From NCBI RefSeq assembly GCF_021491375.1, contig NZ_JAKEVY010000005.1, positions 124,001-188,000 of the forward strand: DNA of 64,000 nt, read 5' to 3'. The first letter of the stretch is position 1; each line of letters starts with the position of its first letter. Made by a program: the position numbers and the translations under genes. The DNA is from Flavihumibacter fluminis (GTDB lineage: Bacteria > Bacteroidota > Bacteroidia > Chitinophagales > Chitinophagaceae). The notes under the pieces are model-generated. The model saw only the letters and a program-made list of their open reading frames with translations. It was not told the DNA's origin and did no database searches. Positions 2,619-35,872 of the stretch are shown piece by piece.

Positions 2619-2670
2619 TCTTCCTTTCCTCCTTCCTCCATTCTCCCTCCTCCTTTGTCTCCTCTTCCAT
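2619..2670 (-). repeat. Purine-rich intergenic element, copy 2 (inverted)
   Basis: This C/T-rich stretch lies between two convergent genes. Its reverse complement begins TATGGAAGAGGAGAC and continues AAAGGAG, matching the start of the 12847-12942 element over more than 20 bases. It fills the whole intergenic space. Confidence 0.65.
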
Positions 2671-12114: not shown

Positions 12115-12846
12115 GTGGGTTTATTTGATAGCATCCTGAAAGGTTCTTCTCCCGAAACGACGGAATTCAAGAAACAATTGAAAAACGTACTCGGGTTTGC
12201 GCCTGGAAATACCGACCTATATAAAACTGCACTGACACACCGGTCGGTAAAGGATTCTTCTGCAGATAATAATGAGCGGCTGGAATACCTGGGCGATGCC
12301 ATTTTAAGTGGTATTGTGGCAGATTTTCTCTTCAAAAAATACCCTTATCGCGAGGAAGGTTTCCTGACGGAGATGCGCTCCAAGATGGTGAACCGGGTAA
12401 CCCTTAATGAGGTGGCCATCAAAATGGGCCTCAAAAAAATCGTCTATTTCAACAAGTTTGATAACTCGCTGAAGGTGAGCCAGATCTTTGGCAATACCCT
12501 GGAAGCGGTGGTTGGAGCAGTGTACCTGGACAAAGGCTTCAAGAAAACCCGCACCTGGGTACTGGAAAGAATTATCCTGCCTTACATGTTCATGGACGAC
12601 CTGGAAAACCTCGAAATCAATCACAAGAACAAATTATACGGCTGGGCCAACAAAAATGGCAAGAACCTCGAATTCGAAACCCTCGAAGAAAAGTTTGAGG
12701 GTGGTCGCCGCCTCTTCACCATTGGTGCGGTGGTAGATGGCCAGTTGCTCGCCCAGGGCAAGGCCTACAATAAAAAAGACGCCAGCCAGGTAGCTGCCCA
12801 GGCCGCCGTGGAGAAGCTGGGGCTGAATAAGGAAAGTGAAACGTAG
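12115..12846 (+). CDS. rnc: Ribonuclease III
   Basis: This 243-residue endonuclease cuts double-stranded RNA in rRNA maturation and mRNA turnover. The start is a GTG. The signature NERLEYLGDA lies at residues 53-62, giving the metal ligands equivalent to E. coli Glu38 (E54) and Asp45 (D61). The second half-site reads GNTLEAVVGAVYLDKG, so Glu117 is kept (E130) but the Asp114 position is Asn127. A double-stranded RNA-binding domain fills about residues 170-238 (ASQVAAQAAVEKLG). It lies downstream of fabF, probably in one transcript. The Asn may be a lineage trait. Confidence 0.93.
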   Translation: MGLFDSILKGSSPETTEFKKQLKNVLGFAPGNTDLYKTALTHRSVKDSSADNNERLEYLGDAILSGIVADFLFKKYPYREEGFLTEMRSKMVNRVTLNEVAIKMGLKKIVYFNKFDNSLKVSQIFGNTLEAVVGAVYLDKGFKKTRTWVLERIILPYMFMDDLENLEINHKNKLYGWANKNGKNLEFETLEEKFEGGRRLFTIGAVVDGQLLAQGKAYNKKDASQVAAQAAVEKLGLNKESET

Positions 12847-12942
12847 TATGGAAGAGGAGACAAAGGAGAAGGGAGACAGGAGACAAAGGAGAAGGGAGAC
12901 AAGGGAGGAATGGAAGATGGAGGAAAGGAAGAGGGGATTTCC
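12847..12942 (+). repeat. Purine-rich intergenic element, copy 3, with 23-bp tandem duplication
   Basis: This A/G-rich tract starts directly after the rnc stop. It contains a perfect 23-base unit (beginning GGAGACAAAGGAG) twice in tandem at 12856-12878 and 12879-12901. It then runs into GGAATGGAAGATGG and GGAAAGGAAGAGGGGATTTCC, matching copy 1. Its first 22 bases match copy 2. It extends the next gene's frame upstream artificially. Confidence 0.75.
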
Positions 12943-12975
12943 GGTTTTGAATTCCACCTATTATATTTGGGCCTG

Positions 12976-15900
12976 ATGCCTTCCTGTGTAAAAAAAAATT
13001 GCTGCAAACCTTTTCTGGTTCTGATATTACTATTGTCCGGATATGTTTCTTTGAGTCAGTCGAATGCTCCGAAACGTCCTGTACCATCTGGTCAAAAAAT
13101 TCAGGGCAGCAGATCGCTGCTGGAATTTTCGCTATTACTTGAACGAACAGAGAAACTGCCATCACCTGGCAGTCCGGGAGCAACCCCGGCCAGAGTAAAA
13201 AAACTTCAATCGCAAATTCCTCAGCGACCTTCCTCATTCCAGCATAATTCGACAGGGATAACCAATTCCCTGAGTGAAGTATGTTTTACCATTTCCGGCA
13301 GAGATTTTTTACATCATAGTTCGTTGGGGTTTTATACTGCGCAACCAATCCAGACCAGGGATGGACATTTTATTATACCTGGCGAATTTGTTGATTATAA
13401 TAGTGTACCCTACCGCAGCGGGGGATCCTGTATAAAAACGGATGCCGAAGGAAATGTAATTTGGGCGAAATTGATTGATAGTCTTCAGCAAACACCGGGC
13501 TATTTTTTGAGTTACTTCAGGGTGCTTGAATTAGTTGACCGTTCCCTGCTATTATTGGGGAGAACACCCAATAAAGTTACCGGCAACTATGATCTGATCT
13601 TTACCAAACTTGATCCCAATGGCAATCTGCTTTGGTCAAAAACTTTTTCTTCAAGGCTGTGGGAAGGTTATAATGGAACAGGGGATTATTTCTATGTAAC
13701 CGACCTGGAGCAGGATCCCGCAGATGGTCAGGTTTACCTGGTTGGCTCACATTGGGCAAAGGGAATTTCTGTTACGAAATTAAATCCGGCGGATGGAAGC
13801 ATAAGGTGGAGCAATGTGTACCAGTCCGGCGAATTTGAAAACAGTTTTGGATTGGCTATACAATCGAATCAATTACTTCTTTTTAATCTCCAGGGCAATT
13901 ACAATTCCTACCTTGTCATAAGTGCGCTGGATAAAAATTCAGGAAACAAAATCCGGCAAAAATCATTGATCAGCACGATGGATTGGATGGGTCCCAAAAT
14001 CTATCGGCCGATCGAACTGGTGGTTACGGAATCCGGAAAATTTCTTTTATCCGGAATAACCAACTGGTACTCCAGAACGCCAGGGGTTCCCGGGCCGGAA
14101 TACTTATCACATGCTGAAGTAATTGAACTGGATCAAAACGCTGATTTTGAAAATAGTTTTGTTTTCAGAAACCAGGTAGATGCTTCTCCCTTATTAACGC
14201 AAGTCAGTTTGGCAAAAGATGGCTCGGGAGTATTTTCCATGTTTGAATACGAGAGTGGGTTTACGGGCAAAGCACATATTGCTATGTTCAAAGACGGGAA
14301 AATTTACCACCAGAGAAAACGTGAACATATTAATGAGGGAATACCTTATGAACCGCCTTATCTTTCAACTGGTAATGGTGGTTTCGTGAACATTAAATTG
14401 ATGGGCGATAGTACCAAAACCTTTGCAGATGGATCCCGAATCGATTTTTATAAAATGCACAGTTCAGATACGCTGGGAGCATGTATCGGATTTCCGGATT
14501 CCGTTACTTCCCTGCTATCCAAATATTACATACCGGCTGACTTGCCGATGTATGAAAAAATAGAGCGAAATGATTTGAGTGAACAGCTTTCAATCGTTCA
14601 TAATGTAAATGACAATCGGTTTGTTAAAGCGCCAGCATGTCAAATTATATCGCACTGTGATTCCGTATCTGTTCGTGCAGACCAGGAGGCGGTATGTGTT
14701 GGTTCCAGGATAACTGTTACACTGGGGAAGAACCCCGCTTGCGGAAGCCTTATCCCGTTGGAATTTGATTCCAGTTTTGTGAGCGCTGTACAACAGCTTA
14801 ATGATTCCATGTATTCTTTCCAATTGGCAAAATCCGGCATCTTCACAATACATGCCAGTGTAATGGGATGTTCAATAAAAAAAGACAGTGTACGGATAAT
14901 TGTAACGCAGGTTCAAAATATTCTTGATTTAGGAGCGGATACGGTGCTTTGCAAAAACAATTCCCTTTTATTGAAAGCCGATGCTGGTTTTATACAGTAT
15001 CGCTGGCAGGATGGCACAACAACTCCCGAATTCAGGGTTACCCAGCCTGGAAAATATTATGTTGACGTTACTAACGCTTGTGGTAATTCATTGAGTGATA
15101 CTATTTGGGTTCGGGAACATCCGCCGATTGCATTGAACTTGGGAACCGACAAGGAACTGTGTTTCGATGCGCCAGCTACCATTGAAGCCCCTGAGGGATT
15201 TATTAACTATGAATGGTCAAATTCCCTGGACACAAGTGCTTATAATGGAAGAACCCTATTCATCCGTCCCAATCAACCTGTAGAATACAGATTAACAGCA
15301 GAATTAAAACCCGGCTGTTTTGCTTACGATACGATTCAGTTGTCCATCAGCCGGCCACCGGCTATTGACCTGGGTCTGGATACTTCTATATGTAAAACAG
15401 CTACTCTTTCACTGAACGCCGGTGCCGGGTTTAGTTCATATCAATGGAGTACAGGTTCAACAAGCAATTTTATTACGGTATCAGAAAAGGGAAGTTATTG
15501 GGTAAATGGTTATTTGCCGAATGGCTGCTTCAGTTCAGATACGATTGAACTGGTAGAAGTATATGAATTGCCAGTTCCTTATTTAGGACCAGATCGGGTT
15601 ATTTGTGAAGGCCAACCGGAACTATTACAACCGGCAGGGACCTATGCAAATTACTTATGGCAGGATGCTTCCATTGCGCCTGTTCTACAGGTAAATCAAC
15701 CTGGAACCTATTGGGTAAGAGCATCCAATAGTTTTGGGTGTATTGGGACAGATACACTGGTCATAACTGAAACCAAACTACCTCCTTCCGATTTCCTGGA
15801 TGCCGATACATTAATTTGTTCCTACAGTACCATTGACCTGGTGCCAGGGAGAGATTTTAGTAACTATAAATGGAATACAGGAGCCAGTTCCCGCGGAATT

Positions 15901-16272
15901 CAGGTTAAAACACAGGGGCTCTATTGGCTTACAGTTACAGATGAGTTTAATTGCAGGGGTACCGACTCCATTGTTATAACTACGAAAGACTGTCTGAAAG
16001 GTGTCTTTTTGCCGAATGCTTTCAGTCCGAATGGAGACCACAAAAATGATCTGTTCAGAGCACAGGTATTTGGTCAGCTTCAGAAATTTGAACTGCGGAT
16101 TTATAACCGGTTTGGACAGCTGATTTTTGAAACAACGAATCCTGATTCGGGCTGGAATGGTACCCTGAATGGAATGCTCCAGAATACCGGAACCTTTATT
16201 TGGACCTGTACGTATCAGCTAATCGGCGAGCCACTTGAACAACAGAAAGGGCTACTTCAGTTGATTCGGTAA
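12976..16272 (+). CDS. Large secreted repeat protein with gliding-motility-associated (T9SS type B) C-terminal domain
   Basis: This protein of 1098 residues is probably exported and bound to the cell surface by the type IX system. The start MPSCVKKNCC gives a signal peptide (FLVLILLLSGYVSLSQ, about residues 12-27); an in-frame ATG at 12910 lies inside a repeat and is rejected. The first 600 residues contain strand-rich segments resembling propeller blades (GNLLWSKTFSS, GSIRWSNVY). About five repeats of roughly 70 residues follow (about 14,920-15,990), each with LG.D...C, Y.W..G and G.YWV...GC..DT. The end is the gliding CTD, starting FLPNAFSPNGD with NRFGQLIFET. The ligand is unknown. Confidence 0.88.
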   Translation: MPSCVKKNCCKPFLVLILLLSGYVSLSQSNAPKRPVPSGQKIQGSRSLLEFSLLLERTEKLPSPGSPGATPARVKKLQSQIPQRPSSFQHNSTGITNSLSEVCFTISGRDFLHHSSLGFYTAQPIQTRDGHFIIPGEFVDYNSVPYRSGGSCIKTDAEGNVIWAKLIDSLQQTPGYFLSYFRVLELVDRSLLLLGRTPNKVTGNYDLIFTKLDPNGNLLWSKTFSSRLWEGYNGTGDYFYVTDLEQDPADGQVYLVGSHWAKGISVTKLNPADGSIRWSNVYQSGEFENSFGLAIQSNQLLLFNLQGNYNSYLVISALDKNSGNKIRQKSLISTMDWMGPKIYRPIELVVTESGKFLLSGITNWYSRTPGVPGPEYLSHAEVIELDQNADFENSFVFRNQVDASPLLTQVSLAKDGSGVFSMFEYESGFTGKAHIAMFKDGKIYHQRKREHINEGIPYEPPYLSTGNGGFVNIKLMGDSTKTFADGSRIDFYKMHSSDTLGACIGFPDSVTSLLSKYYIPADLPMYEKIERNDLSEQLSIVHNVNDNRFVKAPACQIISHCDSVSVRADQEAVCVGSRITVTLGKNPACGSLIPLEFDSSFVSAVQQLNDSMYSFQLAKSGIFTIHASVMGCSIKKDSVRIIVTQVQNILDLGADTVLCKNNSLLLKADAGFIQYRWQDGTTTPEFRVTQPGKYYVDVTNACGNSLSDTIWVREHPPIALNLGTDKELCFDAPATIEAPEGFINYEWSNSLDTSAYNGRTLFIRPNQPVEYRLTAELKPGCFAYDTIQLSISRPPAIDLGLDTSICKTATLSLNAGAGFSSYQWSTGSTSNFITVSEKGSYWVNGYLPNGCFSSDTIELVEVYELPVPYLGPDRVICEGQPELLQPAGTYANYLWQDASIAPVLQVNQPGTYWVRASNSFGCIGTDTLVITETKLPPSDFLDADTLICSYSTIDLVPGRDFSNYKWNTGASSRGIQVKTQGLYWLTVTDEFNCRGTDSIVITTKDCLKGVFLPNAFSPNGDHKNDLFRAQVFGQLQKFELRIYNRFGQLIFETTNPDSGWNGTLNGMLQNTGTFIWTCTYQLIGEPLEQQKGLLQLIR

Positions 16273-16453
16273 ATAACTACCCTGTGGGTAAAATTCCTTG
16301 GGAGTATCCTTGAGCGGTTGGGGAATAGTTCACTGACGGTTCATTGGTGCTTCAATAGTAGTGAAACAATGATGCGGGAGCGGTTGAGATTGACTGACTG
16401 GTTAGATAAAAGTGGCCGAATGGATGGAGAAGAGAGGGTGAATGGCTAAAGAA

Positions 16454-16541
16454 GTGAGACGTCAGACGTGAGACGTGAAGCAAAAGAATGGAAAAGACTT
16501 CTCACATCTCACGTCTGACTTCTGACGTCTCACGTTTCACC
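16454..16541. repeat. Inverted heptanucleotide repeat array, copy 1
   Basis: The left arm at 16454-16481 is four consecutive 7-base units of the form GTSAGAC (GTGAGAC, GTCAGAC, GTGAGAC, GTGAAGC). The right arm at 16500-16541 is six units of the complementary form (TCTCACA, TCTCACG, TCTGACT, TCTGACG, TCTCACG, TTTCACC). The arms can pair across an 18-base spacer. The right arm overlaps the 3' end of the methylmalonyl-CoA epimerase gene. Confidence 0.8.
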
Positions 16542-16933
16542 TCCATGCACAGCTCCACCAACACCCCCGTAGTTCCCTTCGGATGTAAAAAACAAACCAG
16601 CTTATTATCCGCACCGGGTTTGGGTTCGGGATTGAGGAGTTCAAATCCTGCTGCGCGGAGGCGTTCCATTTCAGCATAAATATCCTCTACGGCAAATGCG
16701 ATATGATGCATGCCTTCCCCTTTTTTCTCAATATAGCGGGCGATTACTCCCTGAGGATCAGTGCTTTCGAGCAATTCAATTTTGCTTTCTCCCACTGCGA
16801 AAAAGGCTGTACGCACTTTCTCTGTTGTCACTTCTTCCGTTTTATAACAGGGTGTGTTTAAGAGGGCTTCATAGAGCGGGATCGAGGTTTCCAGGCTTTT
16901 TACAGCAATCCCGATATGTTCAATTTTATTCAT
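16502..16933 (-). CDS. mce: Methylmalonyl-CoA epimerase
   Basis: This 143-residue protein of the glyoxalase/vicinal-oxygen-chelate fold interconverts (R)- and (S)-methylmalonyl-CoA in propionate metabolism. The start MNKIEHIGIAVKSLE gives the first metal ligand His6, and GMHHIAFAVEDI and VLVELCME supply the later ones. A longer frame to 16996 is rejected because homology begins at MNKIEH. The last 12 residues (VKRETSEVRREM) are read from the heptanucleotide repeat, so the natural C-terminus has been extended or replaced by the repeat. A B12-binding mutase subunit lies about 12 kb downstream. Confidence 0.9.
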   Translation of the reverse strand: MNKIEHIGIAVKSLETSIPLYEALLNTPCYKTEEVTTEKVRTAFFAVGESKIELLESTDPQGVIARYIEKKGEGMHHIAFAVEDIYAEMERLRAAGFELLNPEPKPGADNKLVCFLHPKGTTGVLVELCMEVKRETSEVRREM

Positions 16934-17065
16934 GTGCCAACTGATTTTTGAACCAGAGGAAGCGTGCTCGGAGCAGGACATCCACCAGCGATTCAAAGAT
17001 AAGAAGTGGCTTCGCTGACTTTACCCTTATCCGAACGATTGCATGTAACTTTATGTTCTTTAAAT

Positions 17066-18217
17066 ATGGAAACTCCTTTTCAGGTACCGGTTTATTTGGA
17101 TAACAATGCCACCACCCCCATGGATCCGAGGGTGCTGGAGGCCATGATGCCCTATTTCACCAAACAGTTTGGCAATGCCGCCAGCAGGTCACATGCTTAT
17201 GGCTGGGCTGCAGAGGAAGCAGTTGAACTCGCACGTGAACAGGTTGCCCGATTGATTGGGGCTATTCCCCAGGAAATTGTATTTACCTCGGGAGCAACAG
17301 AAGGAGTGAACCTGGCCATTAAAGGCGTGGCAGAAATGTACACCTCAAAAGGCAACCATATTATTACCTGTCAAACCGAACACAAGGCGGTAATCGATAC
17401 CTGTAAACACCTCGAGAAAAAAGGACTGGAAATCACCTGGTTACCGGTGGATGCAACCGGGATGATCAACCTGCAGGAGCTGGAAGCTGCTATCCGGCCC
17501 ACCACCATCCTGATTGCGATCATGTATGCCAACAATGAAACAGGCGTGATCCATCCCGTTCGGGAAATCGGGGCTATTGCCAAAAAGCATGGTGTGCTCT
17601 TTTTCACCGATGCCACCCAGGCGGCAGGAAAGATCCCGGTGGATGTGGAGACAGATCATATTGATATCTTAACCCTTTCGGCACATAAAATCTATGGTCC
17701 CAAAGGAGCCGGAGCTGTGTATGTGAGAAGAAGAGATCCGCGGGTTCGACTTACCGCCCAAATGGATGGGGGAGGTCATGAACGAGGGATGAGATCGGGC
17801 ACCTTAAATGTGCCGGGTATAGTGGGACTTGGAAAAGCAGCTGATCTATGCAGGTTGGAAATGGAGGCAGAGGCAGCGCGACTTACAACTTTGCGTAACC
17901 GCCTGCAGGAGGGTATCTTATCCTTACCGGGTGTGGTCCTGAATGGACATCCATCCAACCGGTTACCTCATACCCTGAATATCTCTTTCCCCGATCGGGA
18001 TTCCAACAGCCTGTTGCTACAGTTTAACAAAAAACTGGCCTTGTCTGCTGGTTCGGCCTGCACTTCTGCAACCCTGGAACCGTCTTATGTGTTGAAAGCC
18101 ATGGGCTTCTCAGATGAGCGATCCTATTCAGCCCTTCGCTTTGGCCTGGGTCGCTTCACCACGGAAGCTGAAATTGAGTGGGTGCGGGAACTGTTCAGGC
18201 AGGAGTTGGGGAGTTAG
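17066..18217 (+). CDS. Cysteine desulfurase (IscS/NifS family)
   Basis: This 383-residue PLP enzyme takes sulfur from cysteine for Fe-S clusters and tRNA thiolation. It has YLDNNATTPMDP at the N-terminus, the PLP lysine Lys208 in LSAHKIYGPKGAG, and the persulfide Cys332 in LSAGSACTSATLEPS, the short-loop form of group I enzymes. The start METPFQVPVYLDN at 17066 is chosen over an upstream in-frame non-ATG start. An IscA-like carrier follows 97 bases later, which supports a role in Fe-S assembly. Whether it is the IscS or NifS orthologue is not clear. Confidence 0.93.
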   Translation: METPFQVPVYLDNNATTPMDPRVLEAMMPYFTKQFGNAASRSHAYGWAAEEAVELAREQVARLIGAIPQEIVFTSGATEGVNLAIKGVAEMYTSKGNHIITCQTEHKAVIDTCKHLEKKGLEITWLPVDATGMINLQELEAAIRPTTILIAIMYANNETGVIHPVREIGAIAKKHGVLFFTDATQAAGKIPVDVETDHIDILTLSAHKIYGPKGAGAVYVRRRDPRVRLTAQMDGGGHERGMRSGTLNVPGIVGLGKAADLCRLEMEAEAARLTTLRNRLQEGILSLPGVVLNGHPSNRLPHTLNISFPDRDSNSLLLQFNKKLALSAGSACTSATLEPSYVLKAMGFSDERSYSALRFGLGRFTTEAEIEWVRELFRQELGS

Positions 18218-18281
18218 CCTCACTCCGACTTAGGGTACCTCACTAGTTGGGTGCCATCCACCACGGCGGAGAGAAAAAGTG

Positions 18282-18289
18282 TAAATTTG
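18282..18289 (+). promoter_or_regulatory. Possible -7 box upstream of the IscA-like gene
   Basis: TAAATTTG fits TAnnTTTG and lies 25 bases before the ATG at 18315. No -33 TTG is at the standard distance, so the call is weak. Confidence 0.35.
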
Positions 18290-18314
18290 TACATCGAAAT
18301 AAACGGAGACGACT

Positions 18315-18647
18315 ATGTTATTTGTAAGTGATAAAGCAAAGGATAAAGTATTGAAGCTGCTGGATGAGGCAGATGTAAACAAAACCGGGGATTATTTCCT
18401 GAGGGTTTCCGTTGTGGGAGGAGGATGCTCCGGACTCAGCTACAAACTGGATTTTGACAATGTGAGCAAGCCGGCCGATCAGGTATTTGAAGACAATGGT
18501 ATCAAGGTAGTAACCGATTTGAAGAGTTTTCTCTACCTGGTAAACACCACCCTGGAATTCTCCGACGGCCTCAATGGTAAAGGTTTTTATTTCAGTAACC
18601 CCAATGCAAGCAGAACCTGCGCCTGCGGGGAGAGCTTCGCGGTCTAA
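18315..18647 (+). CDS. Iron-sulfur cluster carrier/assembly protein (IscA/ErpA/SufA type)
   Basis: This 110-residue A-type carrier receives and delivers Fe-S clusters. The three conserved cysteines are present: Cys38 in VVGGGCSGLSY and Cys102 and Cys104 in SRTCACGESF at the C-terminus. The length equals the family norm. It lies just after the cysteine desulfurase on the same strand, in line with a shared role in cluster assembly. Sequence alone does not separate IscA from ErpA or SufA. Confidence 0.93.
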   Translation: MLFVSDKAKDKVLKLLDEADVNKTGDYFLRVSVVGGGCSGLSYKLDFDNVSKPADQVFEDNGIKVVTDLKSFLYLVNTTLEFSDGLNGKGFYFSNPNASRTCACGESFAV

Positions 18648-18652
18648 GGAAT

Positions 18653-18730
18653 GTGAGACGTCAGACGTCAGACGTGAGAGGTGAGACGAGGGAAATTCAG
18701 CGTCTCACGTCTGACATCTCACATTTCACC
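18653..18730. repeat. Inverted heptanucleotide repeat array, copy 2
   Basis: The left arm at 18653-18687 is five 7-base units (GTGAGAC, GTCAGAC, GTCAGAC, GTGAGAG, GTGAGAC). The right arm at 18702-18729 is four (GTCTCAC, GTCTGAC, ATCTCAC, ATTTCAC). It fills the gap between the IscA-like gene and gldF, and its translation makes a false N-terminal extension of gldF. Confidence 0.8.
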
Positions 18731-18745
18731 TTATTTTTACCCCCT

Positions 18746-19471
18746 ATGTGGTCAATTGCTAAAAAAGAGTTCAGGCAGTTTTTTGGAAGTCTGACTGGCC
18801 TGGTGGCTATCGTCGTTTTCCTGCTGCTGAACGGACTTTTTCTTTTTGTATTTCCCGATTCCAGCATCCTGGATTATGGGTATGCGAGCCTGGATAAATT
18901 CTTCCAGCTGGCACCCTGGATCCTGCTCTTCTTGGTTCCCGCTGTTACTATGCGCAGCTGGTCCGATGAATTCAGGGCAGGAACCTTTGAGATCCTGGCA
19001 ACCCGGCCACTTAAACCATCGCAACTGGTTGTTGGAAAATTCCTTGGGGCCTATGCTATCGTGGTGATTGCACTGCTGCCTACCATCCTCTATGCGTTCA
19101 GCGTTCAGGCATTGGCGGTAGATAAAGGCATTGATTGGGGTGGCACCATCGGATCCTATATCGGACTGTTTTTGCTGGCTGCTGTTTTTACCGCCATCGG
19201 TACCTGGTGCAGCAGCCTGAACTCGAACAGCGTAATCGCCTTTCTTCTGAGTGCATTTATGTGTTTCATTTTATATACCGGCTTTAACGCGCTGAGTCAG
19301 TTACCCGCCCTGCAGGGAAATGCCGATTACCTGCTGCAAAAAATTGGCATCGATTTCCATTATCAAAGCATCAGCAGAGGCGTGGTAGACAGTCGGGATA
19401 TCATTTACTTCGGCAGCGTAATTGCTTTTTTCCTGCTCATCACCAACCGTAAAATTGCGCTGAACCAGTAA
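18746..19471 (+). CDS. gldF: Gliding motility ABC transporter permease GldF
   Basis: This 241-residue inner-membrane protein of the ABC-2 permease type has about six transmembrane helices, starting MWSIAKKEFRQFFGSLTG. The segment PAVTMRSWSDEFRAGTFE followed by LATRPLKPSQLVVGKFLG is characteristic of ABC-2 permeases. It works with GldG and the ATPase GldA, which is not in this window. The start at 18746 excludes 31 codons read from the repeat. GldG begins two bases after the stop, so the two are co-translated. In Flavobacterium this transporter is linked to gliding, though its exact role is unsettled. Confidence 0.9.
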   Translation: MWSIAKKEFRQFFGSLTGLVAIVVFLLLNGLFLFVFPDSSILDYGYASLDKFFQLAPWILLFLVPAVTMRSWSDEFRAGTFEILATRPLKPSQLVVGKFLGAYAIVVIALLPTILYAFSVQALAVDKGIDWGGTIGSYIGLFLLAAVFTAIGTWCSSLNSNSVIAFLLSAFMCFILYTGFNALSQLPALQGNADYLLQKIGIDFHYQSISRGVVDSRDIIYFGSVIAFFLLITNRKIALNQ

Positions 19472-35784: not shown

Positions 35785-35872
35785 GGAGAGATGTCCGAGT
35801 GGTTGAAGGAGCACGCCTGGAAAGTGTGTATACCTCTAAAGGGTATCGCGGGTTCGAATCCCGCTCTCTCCG
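35785..35872 (+). tRNA. tRNA-Ser(GGA)
   Basis: An 88-base class II tRNA folds fully. The acceptor GGAGAGA (35785-35791) pairs with TCTCTCC (35865-35871), and the discriminator is G. The anticodon stem CACGC/GTGTG encloses the loop CTGGAAA, giving anticodon GGA, which reads UCC and UCU. The long variable arm TACCT...AGGGTA is typical of serine tRNAs. The T loop is TTCGAAT. The 3' CCA is not encoded, as is common in this phylum. Confidence 0.97.

What the first reader, a model, noticed from the sequence alone, without database searches (positions are those of the whole stretch)
16454..18730. Two inverted arrays of a GTSAGAC heptanucleotide
At 16454-16541 and 18653-18730 a seven-base unit (GTGAGAC or GTCAGAC) repeats in tandem, then repeats again as its complement after a short spacer, so each locus can form a long hairpin or cruciform. 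The two copies lie only 2.2 kb apart, at gene ends. The unit length is not a multiple of three and the arms differ in number (4+6 and 5+4 units), which suggests slippage. I know of no named Bacteroidota repeat of this kind.
Basis: seen in the sequence. Interest (0 to 1): 0.7.

Follow-up and report, generated by a model that had tools for sequence, protein, structure and literature searches.

The report
Seven-base repeat hairpins at gene ends
Short seven-base DNA words are repeated, often in facing pairs, at the ends of many genes in this bacterium, and close relatives keep a facing pair at some of the same spots but spell it with a different word, which suggests that the folded shape may matter more than the letters.

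Summary
Both loci carry facing GTSAGAC arrays (4+6 and 5+4 units) that fold far better than shuffles. They belong to a genome-wide family: 177 exact dimers, none for the reversed pattern. The host is probably a Flavihumibacter (Chitinophagaceae).

Arrays sit at gene boundaries, usually just after a stop codon (54 of 78 arms), with the G-rich strand reading outward, so two arrays in one gap face each other (44 of 46 two-arm loci over four species).

Two congeners, 91-92% identical at one locus, have arrays at most of the same gaps compared, often with another unit (GTGAAAR, GTGAATAAR, GAATTAT), sometimes changed in both arms. In the SufA|gldF gap, of 13 species of the genus, five have facing arrays, seven an intrinsic terminator, none both. 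Elsewhere arrays and terminators do co-occur.

The kind is known: Xanthomonas GGGAATC arrays have much the same geometry, and Nostoc trnL-intron stems swap heptamer classes. Unit swapping in genome-wide gene-end arrays I did not find described.

Best reading: slippage-prone arrays whose facing copies form replaceable transcript-end hairpins. Anatomy is shown; termination and copying mechanism are inferred. A test for locus-specific arm copying was negative.

The parts
16454..16481 (+). Locus 1 left arm: GTGAGAC GTCAGAC GTGAGAC GTGAAGC
16499..16540 (-). Locus 1 right arm: six degenerate GTSARAN units; 16502-16540 also encodes the array-derived C-terminal residues VKRETSEVRREM and the stop of the glyoxalase-family gene
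16502..16933 (-). Glyoxalase-family protein (methylmalonyl-CoA-epimerase-like; that name is recalled), 3' end built from the array; the 16933 start is inferred, the longest ORF begins at 16996
   Evidence: (PF13669, E 3.6e-21)
12910..16272 (+). Type IX secretion CHU_C-domain protein whose 3' end faces locus 1 (called gap 16272-16501)
   Evidence: (PF13585)
18315..18647 (+). Fe-S cluster biosynthesis gene (SufA/IscA-like; the name is recalled); array begins 5 nt after its TAA
   Evidence: (PF01521)
18653..18687 (+). Locus 2 left arm: GTGAGAC GTCAGAC GTCAGAC GTGAGAG GTGAGAC
18702..18729 (-). Locus 2 right arm: four units (complement strand: GTGAAAT GTGAGAT GTCAGAC GTGAGAC)
18732..18739 (+). TATTTTTA, similar to the -7 element of Bacteroidota promoters (consensus TAnnTTTG recalled); a TATTTTT-like stretch recurs just before the next start in most congeners
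   Evidence: read by eye
18746..19471 (+). ABC-2 membrane protein (GldF-like, name recalled), next gene after locus 2
   Evidence: PF12679
12855..12907 (+). AGGAGACAAA-type array: another unit of the same class of gene-end arrays, after the gene at 12115-12846 (RNase III-like by eye, not tested)

Best explanation
The two loci are members of a genome-wide family of intergenic heptanucleotide arrays. Each array starts at or just outside a gene boundary, usually a few nt after a stop codon, with the G-rich strand reading outward, so two arrays in one gap form a hairpin-capable inverted pair. Copy number changes by slippage. The whole unit can be exchanged for another heptamer or nonamer, at several loci in both arms, while the site and the facing geometry persist. 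I infer that the facing arrays act as replaceable transcript-end hairpins (termination or 3'-end protection), and that template switching or conversion between arrays homogenises arms and spreads units. Shown: the family, the geometry, the folding, the unit exchange, and at one gap the alternation between array hairpin and intrinsic terminator. Inferred: slippage, termination, selection for the hairpin, and the copying mechanism.
For: Family: 177 exact dimers in G000 versus 0 for the reversed pattern. Geometry: single + arms 22 of 22 nearer the left gene, single - arms 17 of 19 nearer the right gene. Arm classes in 732 kb, of 78 arms: 54 sense after stop, 13 antisense before start, 5 antisense after stop, 0 sense before start, 4 far, 2 inside coding sequence. 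Two-arm loci purine-first: 44 of 46 over four species. Outermost arms share a unit more often than permuted in G004 (6 of 9, P 0.012) and G008 (6 of 9, P 0.007). Unit exchange at orthologous gaps, in several with both arms changed (read by eye). Native hairpins had lower mean MFE than arm-swapped versions in 18 of 21 species-pair comparisons at 7 loci, not independent of each other. SufA|gldF gap: facing tandem arrays in 5 of 13 species of the genus with 4 kinds of unit (GTSAGAC, GTGAATAAA, a GTGAATA/GTGAATAAA mix, TAAGGTT), intrinsic terminator in 7 of 13, both in 0, neither in 1. Another genus, G034: adjacent pairs '+-' 8, '-+' 0. Published parallels: Xanthomonas arrays on the coding strand 0-50 bp after stops and 70 and 75 convergent pairs; Nostoc P6b class replacement.
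Against: In the own genome, GTSAGAC arms of one locus are no more alike than arms of different loci (15 loci, 19.57 versus 19.00, P 0.20), so locus-by-locus copying is not demonstrated. Unit concordance of outermost arms is borderline in the own genome (15 of 24, permuted 12.4, P 0.056) and uninformative in G014 (1 of 2); immediate-neighbour arms in the own genome show none (8 of 25, permuted 8.9). The GAATTAT class as detected there is not above its Markov control in the own genome (16 versus 25 arms). Arrays do not avoid intrinsic terminators genome-wide: 15 of 46 array-bearing gene ends have one, versus 43 of 240 others. Over 45 species-by-gap cases the exclusion is not significant (P 0.13). 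Many arrays are single-armed, and one lies inside isoleucyl-tRNA synthetase coding sequence. At one locus only one arm changed unit and at another the change is mixed (B 73005 and B 76794). The split points were chosen on native sequences, which favours native over swapped. No transcript data were available. Species counts are not corrected for phylogeny.
Confidence: 0.5

Rival explanations
1. Neutral mutational by-product: heptamer arrays arise by polymerase slippage and template switching, survive only where harmless (just past stop codons, away from promoters), and have no function. The facing geometry reflects mutation and tolerance alone.
For: Arrays are depleted in divergent gaps (4 of 59 loci, while divergent gaps hold 14241 of 48913 gap bases). 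Single-armed and coding arrays exist. Heptamer units of very different sequence occur in loci from many phyla. Mrazek's proposal of 7-nt slippage is cited in PMC4679880.
Against: Orientation bias also holds for the AAAGGAGAC and GGAAGATGGA units, which I read as stop-free on both strands (22 sense versus 2 antisense after stops). Pure tolerance does not predict alternation with an intrinsic terminator at one gap or unit exchange in both arms.
Confidence: 0.35
2. Backup stop codons: because 7 is 1 modulo 3, three GTGAGAC units present TGA in all three frames, so sense arrays catch read-through and frameshifted ribosomes.
For: 31 of 53 gene ends with a sense array within 60 nt stop with TGA, versus 176 of 629 genes; in 16 the stop is the TGA of the first unit (distance -4). 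The two GTSAGAC arms inside coding sequence are in the stop-free orientation.
Against: Units without stops obey the same orientation in this genome, and the published Xanthomonas GGGAATC unit also reads stop-free to me. Among multi-phylum 7-mers, stop content is only slightly raised (44 of 66 units versus 36.5 +- 3.2). The nonamer arrays do not cover all frames.
Confidence: 0.12
3. A mobile REP/MITE-like element copied by a transposase (RAYT, Y1) or carried by phages.
For: Many dispersed copies share a core, GTGAGACGTCAGACGTGAGA (by eye), and the unit occurs patchily in many phyla.
Against: No Y1 transposase (PF01797) match in G000 or G008; 4 of 15 genomes of the genus have weak matches, not tracking the arrays. 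Only 2 IMG/VR stretches hold the trimer. I saw no fixed ends or target duplications, but did not test for them formally; positions are the same gaps in relatives with other units.
Confidence: 0.05

Closest known systems
GGGAATC / GGGGAYT heptameric repeats of Xanthomonas and Nostoc (PLoS One 2015, PMC4692102)
   Same: 7-nt unit; dispersed intergenic arrays (186 and 183 in two xanthomonads); coding strand within 0-50 bp after stops including overlap with the stop; non-coding strand before starts; 70 and 75 convergent pairs able to form stem-loops; length and sequence variation between close species (passages and section 10 read)
   Different: G-quadruplex-forming unit there; the present unit has no G run. 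Replacement of the whole unit in both arms at orthologous gaps was not in the passages I read; host is Bacteroidota here. Few pairs were found in Nostoc.
Degenerate heptanucleotide stem P6b of the Nostoc trnL intron (PLoS One 2015, PMC4476775)
   Same: Hairpin stem built on one of two heptamer classes; repeated independent replacement of one class by the other; indels of the repeat units (abstract and passages read)
   Different: One locus inside a group I intron, not genome-wide gene ends.
TAACTGA direct repeats of Beggiatoaceae, Cyanobacteria and a few Bacteroidetes (Front Microbiol 2015, PMC4679880)
   Same: Genome-wide mostly intergenic 7-mer arrays with scattered taxonomic distribution (abstract, introduction and passages read)
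   Different: Mostly directly upstream of start codons in forward orientation, one inverted case only; related heptamers rarely repeated.
REP/BIME palindromes with RAYT transposases (features recalled)
   Same: Dispersed intergenic hairpins
   Different: Not tandem heptamers; no RAYT match in the own genome.

Membership tests
Intergenic heptameric SSR families (Xanthomonas/Nostoc type) | 7-nt tandem unit, many dispersed copies per genome | tested here: met
   177 exact dimers, reversed control 0; TRF period 7
Intergenic heptameric SSR families (Xanthomonas/Nostoc type) | Intergenic, near stop on coding strand, or before start on non-coding strand | tested here: met
   Of 78 arms: 54 sense after stop, 13 antisense before start, 5 antisense after stop, 0 sense before start, 4 far, 2 in coding sequence
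Intergenic heptameric SSR families (Xanthomonas/Nostoc type) | Convergent pairs forming inverted repeats | tested here: met
   GTSAGAC loci with both arms: 15 of 15 purine-first; all unit classes: 24 of 25 in the own genome, 44 of 46 over four species
Intergenic heptameric SSR families (Xanthomonas/Nostoc type) | G-quadruplex potential of the unit | tested here: not met
   GTSAGAC has no run of G (sequence itself); G4 is a feature of that published unit, not of heptameric SSRs in general
Nostoc trnL P6b heptamer stems | Both sides of a stem built on one heptamer class, class exchangeable | tested here: met
   not at every locus
Nostoc trnL P6b heptamer stems | Located in a group I intron | tested here: not met
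   Only Rfam match in the window at gathering threshold is one tRNA at 35785-35872; loci lie between protein genes
Intrinsic (Rho-independent) terminator | Short GC-rich stem followed at once by a T run | tested here: not met
   No such site at either locus (locus 2)
Intrinsic (Rho-independent) terminator | Ends transcription | not testable with these tools
   No transcript data
REP/RAYT elements | Y1 REP-associated transposase in the genome | tested here: not met
   PF01797: no match in G000
TAACTGA-type repeats | Forward orientation just upstream of start codons | tested here: not met
   0 sense-before-start arms among 78

The most novel reading that the evidence does not exclude
Bacteria of several phyla may use a sequence-agnostic class of transcript-end hairpin: facing heptamer arrays whose letters are freely exchangeable. 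Slippage and template switching would rewrite both arms together, and such a hairpin would repeatedly replace intrinsic terminators at the same gaps.
Probability: 0.2. Interest if true: 0.75.

Novelty: new variant of a known kind. Interest (0 to 1): 0.5.

Why it matters
Heptamer arrays have been reported as the commonest class of long simple repeat in many bacterial genomes, with polymerase slippage proposed as the reason (PMC4679880 citing Mrazek). Here a set of closely related species keeps the place and the facing geometry while swapping the unit, so structure and mutation can be separated. At one gap an array hairpin and an intrinsic terminator appear as alternatives. If the hairpins work, this would be a terminator-like element that sequence-based searches miss, and a natural test bed for template switching as a maker of RNA stems. 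If they do not, the loci still show how fast repeat DNA rewrites gene ends, including protein C-termini.

Tried and rejected
RAYT/REP mobilisation: no Y1 transposase match in the own genome. Phage carriage: 2 viral-contig stretches only (near-own records may be left out there). Known RNA family: one tRNA in the window. Stop-codon backup as the main reason for orientation: rejected for this genome because stop-free units obey it too. Across phyla the G-strand was sense near 59 and antisense near 21 long-frame ends, but this is confounded by stops inside the arrays; stop-free units gave 7 and 7. A first version counted 44 of 75 arrays with a sense end nearby and 36 of 75 with an antisense end. 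General purine enrichment after stops: only 0.54-0.55 over the first 30 nt, 332 genes. Local mirror order of unit variants: not significant. Exclusion of terminators as a general rule: not supported.

Special status of GTSAGAC among heptamers across the phylum: weak. Six of 158 genomes match, own included, and the reversed control had one genome with 6 hits. Cross-phylum occurrence (115 stretches when the scan stopped at its limit; about 1 expected by my arithmetic under uniform composition) is real but may not exceed that of other heptamers. An early intergenic autocorrelation shows lag 7/14 peaks, but its crude gene calls leave little intergenic DNA, and the G002 row is spoilt by N runs (2,739 N). 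An ungapped inverted-repeat finder was too strict and was dropped.
Full report
Observation. Fifteen dimer matches with up to two mismatches compare with a mean of 0.38 in shuffles. Both loci fold with z about -5.3 as RNA and locus 2 with z -5.6 as DNA. No intrinsic terminator-like site lies at either locus.

Genome-wide family. The exact dimer GTSAGACGTSAGAC occurs 177 times in the 4.71 Mb genome; the same pattern read backwards occurs 0 times. In one search, 12 of 99 genomes (own included) match. Of the 14 congeners among them, G004 has 119, G005 (55% complete) 72 and G008 30, and eleven have none. In the family, 27 of 294 genomes match and 17 have at least three hits; the reversed control hits 13 genomes, never more than twice (counted by eye). 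In the phylum 6 of 158 match, own included; the reversed control hits one genome, six times. The genus is inferred to be Flavihumibacter, family Chitinophagaceae: the contig length 580,471 of G004 equals that of F. cheonanensis WS16, and its counts of 66 and 53 equal those of that locus's genome.

Geometry. In 732 kb of the genome (two contiguous blocks of 448 kb in all, and 284 kb chosen for hits) with 629 called genes I found 59 loci: 34 in tandem gaps, 20 convergent, 4 divergent, 1 inside a gene; gap bases are 26,286, 8,386 and 14,241. Loci with both orientations are purine-first in 15 of 15. Single + arms lie nearer the left gene in 22 of 22 and single - arms nearer the right gene in 17 of 19. 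By arm, 54 of 78 are sense after a stop, 13 antisense before a start, 5 antisense after a stop, 0 sense before a start, 4 far, 2 inside coding sequence. Of 53 gene ends with a sense array within 60 nt, 41 have it starting between -11 and +10 nt of the stop, 16 of them at -4, where the unit's own TGA is the stop. GTGAAAR and AAAGGAGAC show the same bias; GGAAGATGGA does too, but 11 of its 32 matches lie inside coding sequence, so that unit is noisy; GAATTAT has only 7 arms (3 sense and 2 antisense after stops, 2 antisense before starts). Over four species and all unit classes 44 of 46 two-arm loci are purine-first. Class detection there includes chance matches: the Markov controls give none for AAAGGAGAC but more GAATTAT arms than the real own-genome sequence. 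In another genus, G034 (400 kb, 7 of 20 stretches chosen for hits), adjacent pairs are '+-' 8 and '-+' 0; its 21 arms are 9 sense after stop, 6 antisense before start, 2 sense before start, 4 far.

Relatives. I aligned loci with G004 and G008, which are 91 and 92% identical over the cysteine desulfurase/Fe-S gene stretch. Of the nine loci, eight could be anchored in both; by eye G008 has another unit or palindrome at seven of them and G004 at four. One search found 46 orthologous array groups (40 with all three species), of which one search shows 20. The window's locus 1 is GTGAAAG in both arms in G008 (G004 not anchored); locus 2 is GTSAGAC in G004 and the nonamer GTGAATAAA in both arms in G008. 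At B 167392 GAATTAT stands in both arms in G008 where the own genome has GTSAGAC. Not every locus changes both arms: at B 73005 only the left arm changed, and B 76794 is mixed. The SufA|gldF gap was readable in 13 of the 15 genomes of the genus: 5 have facing tandem arrays (G000, G004, G008, G014, G003), 7 an intrinsic terminator, none both, and G002 neither. By my arithmetic the chance of no overlap is about 0.005 if species were independent, which they are not. G011 has inverted repeats of another kind, pyrimidine-first, beside its terminator: an exception to the polarity. Over all 45 testable non-divergent species-by-gap cases the exclusion is not significant (P 0.13), and in the own genome array-bearing ends have terminators more often, not less (15 of 46 versus 43 of 240).

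Coding effects. The right arm of locus 1 encodes the C-terminal VKRETSEVRREM of the glyoxalase-family protein; G008 has VKGEK and G014 VKGER there, and the other congeners have unrelated short tails (the G004 row of that call hit a fragment and is dropped). In isoleucyl-tRNA synthetase the loop before WTTTPWTLPSN carries a stop-free heptamer arm in G000, G004 and G008, about 12 residues longer than the commonest short form. The loop varies in length anyway: G001 has a longer one without heptamers. G029, of another genus, has TAATGAC-like repeats in the same loop, read by eye (29 of 30 fetched loci gave the motif).

Co-variation tests. Native hairpins beat arm-swapped ones in mean MFE in 18 of 21 species-pair comparisons and in arm score in 14 of 21, at 7 loci; the comparisons are not independent and the split points favour natives. 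Outermost-arm unit agreement exceeds permutation in G004 (6 of 9, P 0.012) and G008 (6 of 9, P 0.007), is borderline in the own genome (15 of 24, P 0.056) and uninformative in G014 (1 of 2). Immediate neighbours agree in G004 (6 of 9, P 0.0125) and G008 (7 of 10, P 0.0005) but no more than chance in the own genome (8 of 25). Arms within one GTSAGAC locus are not closer to each other than to other loci (15 loci, P 0.20). So arms agree in unit class in two species, but locus-specific copying is not shown.

Beyond the phylum. Thirty genomes reached from those loci, one of them G004 again, hold 2 to 136 dimers; the reversed control is zero in 28 of 30. In the 80 loci listed, tandem arrays without the query are mostly period 7: 87 of 140, with 3 arrays in the Markov control. 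These genomes were ascertained by GTSAGAC, so the figures describe them, not bacteria at large.

Literature. Heptamers as the most abundant long simple repeats in most genomes of one survey, and the slippage proposal, are reported in PMC4679880 citing Mrazek (introduction read). Geometry and convergent pairs like those here are described for GGGAATC (PMC4692102, passages and section 10), and heptamer class replacement for Nostoc P6b (PMC4476775, abstract and passages). Template switching as a source of RNA stems: PMC8794818 (abstract and opening text). A search for four dimer strings found one unrelated paper. I found no description of unit exchange in genome-wide gene-end arrays in the seven paper searches, which cover open-licence papers only and of which I opened four.

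Reading. The anatomy and the unit exchange are shown. That the hairpin ends or protects transcripts, and that template switching rewrites arms, are inferences held at about even odds, a purely mutational reading being the main rival.

Noticed in passing
own genome C37:53442-53476 (L049), outside the window: A stop-free GTCTSAC arm lies in a length-variable loop of isoleucyl-tRNA synthetase in three congeners; TAATGAC-like repeats stand in the same loop in another genus (G029, L236).
   Followed up: partly
window 12855-12932: AGGAGACAAA / GGAGGAAAGGAAGAT arrays after the gene at 12115-12846: other units of the same gene-end class.
   Followed up: partly
window 2626-2670: TTCCTCC / CTCCCTCCTCCATT array of the GGAGGAATGG type.
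   Followed up: no
own C37:120118-120149: Array of the palindromic decamer ACGTAGGATT, also present in G004 and G008.
   Followed up: no
G014 stretches L086, L096, L097 and G008 near the orthologue of own C37:98907: A second palindrome family (GGTGCCACCCGACCGGTG with a 5-nt loop); one such palindrome stands at a G008 gap where the own genome has a heptamer array.
   Followed up: no
L093 (G003), SufA|gldF gap: TAAGGTT heptamers face each other around further sequence, a distant congener's own unit at the same gap.
   Followed up: partly
L103, L169, L172: Telomere-like GGGATTA, GGGGTTT and ATTCAGTT arrays in Bacteroidota loci beside GTSAGAC arrays.
   Followed up: no
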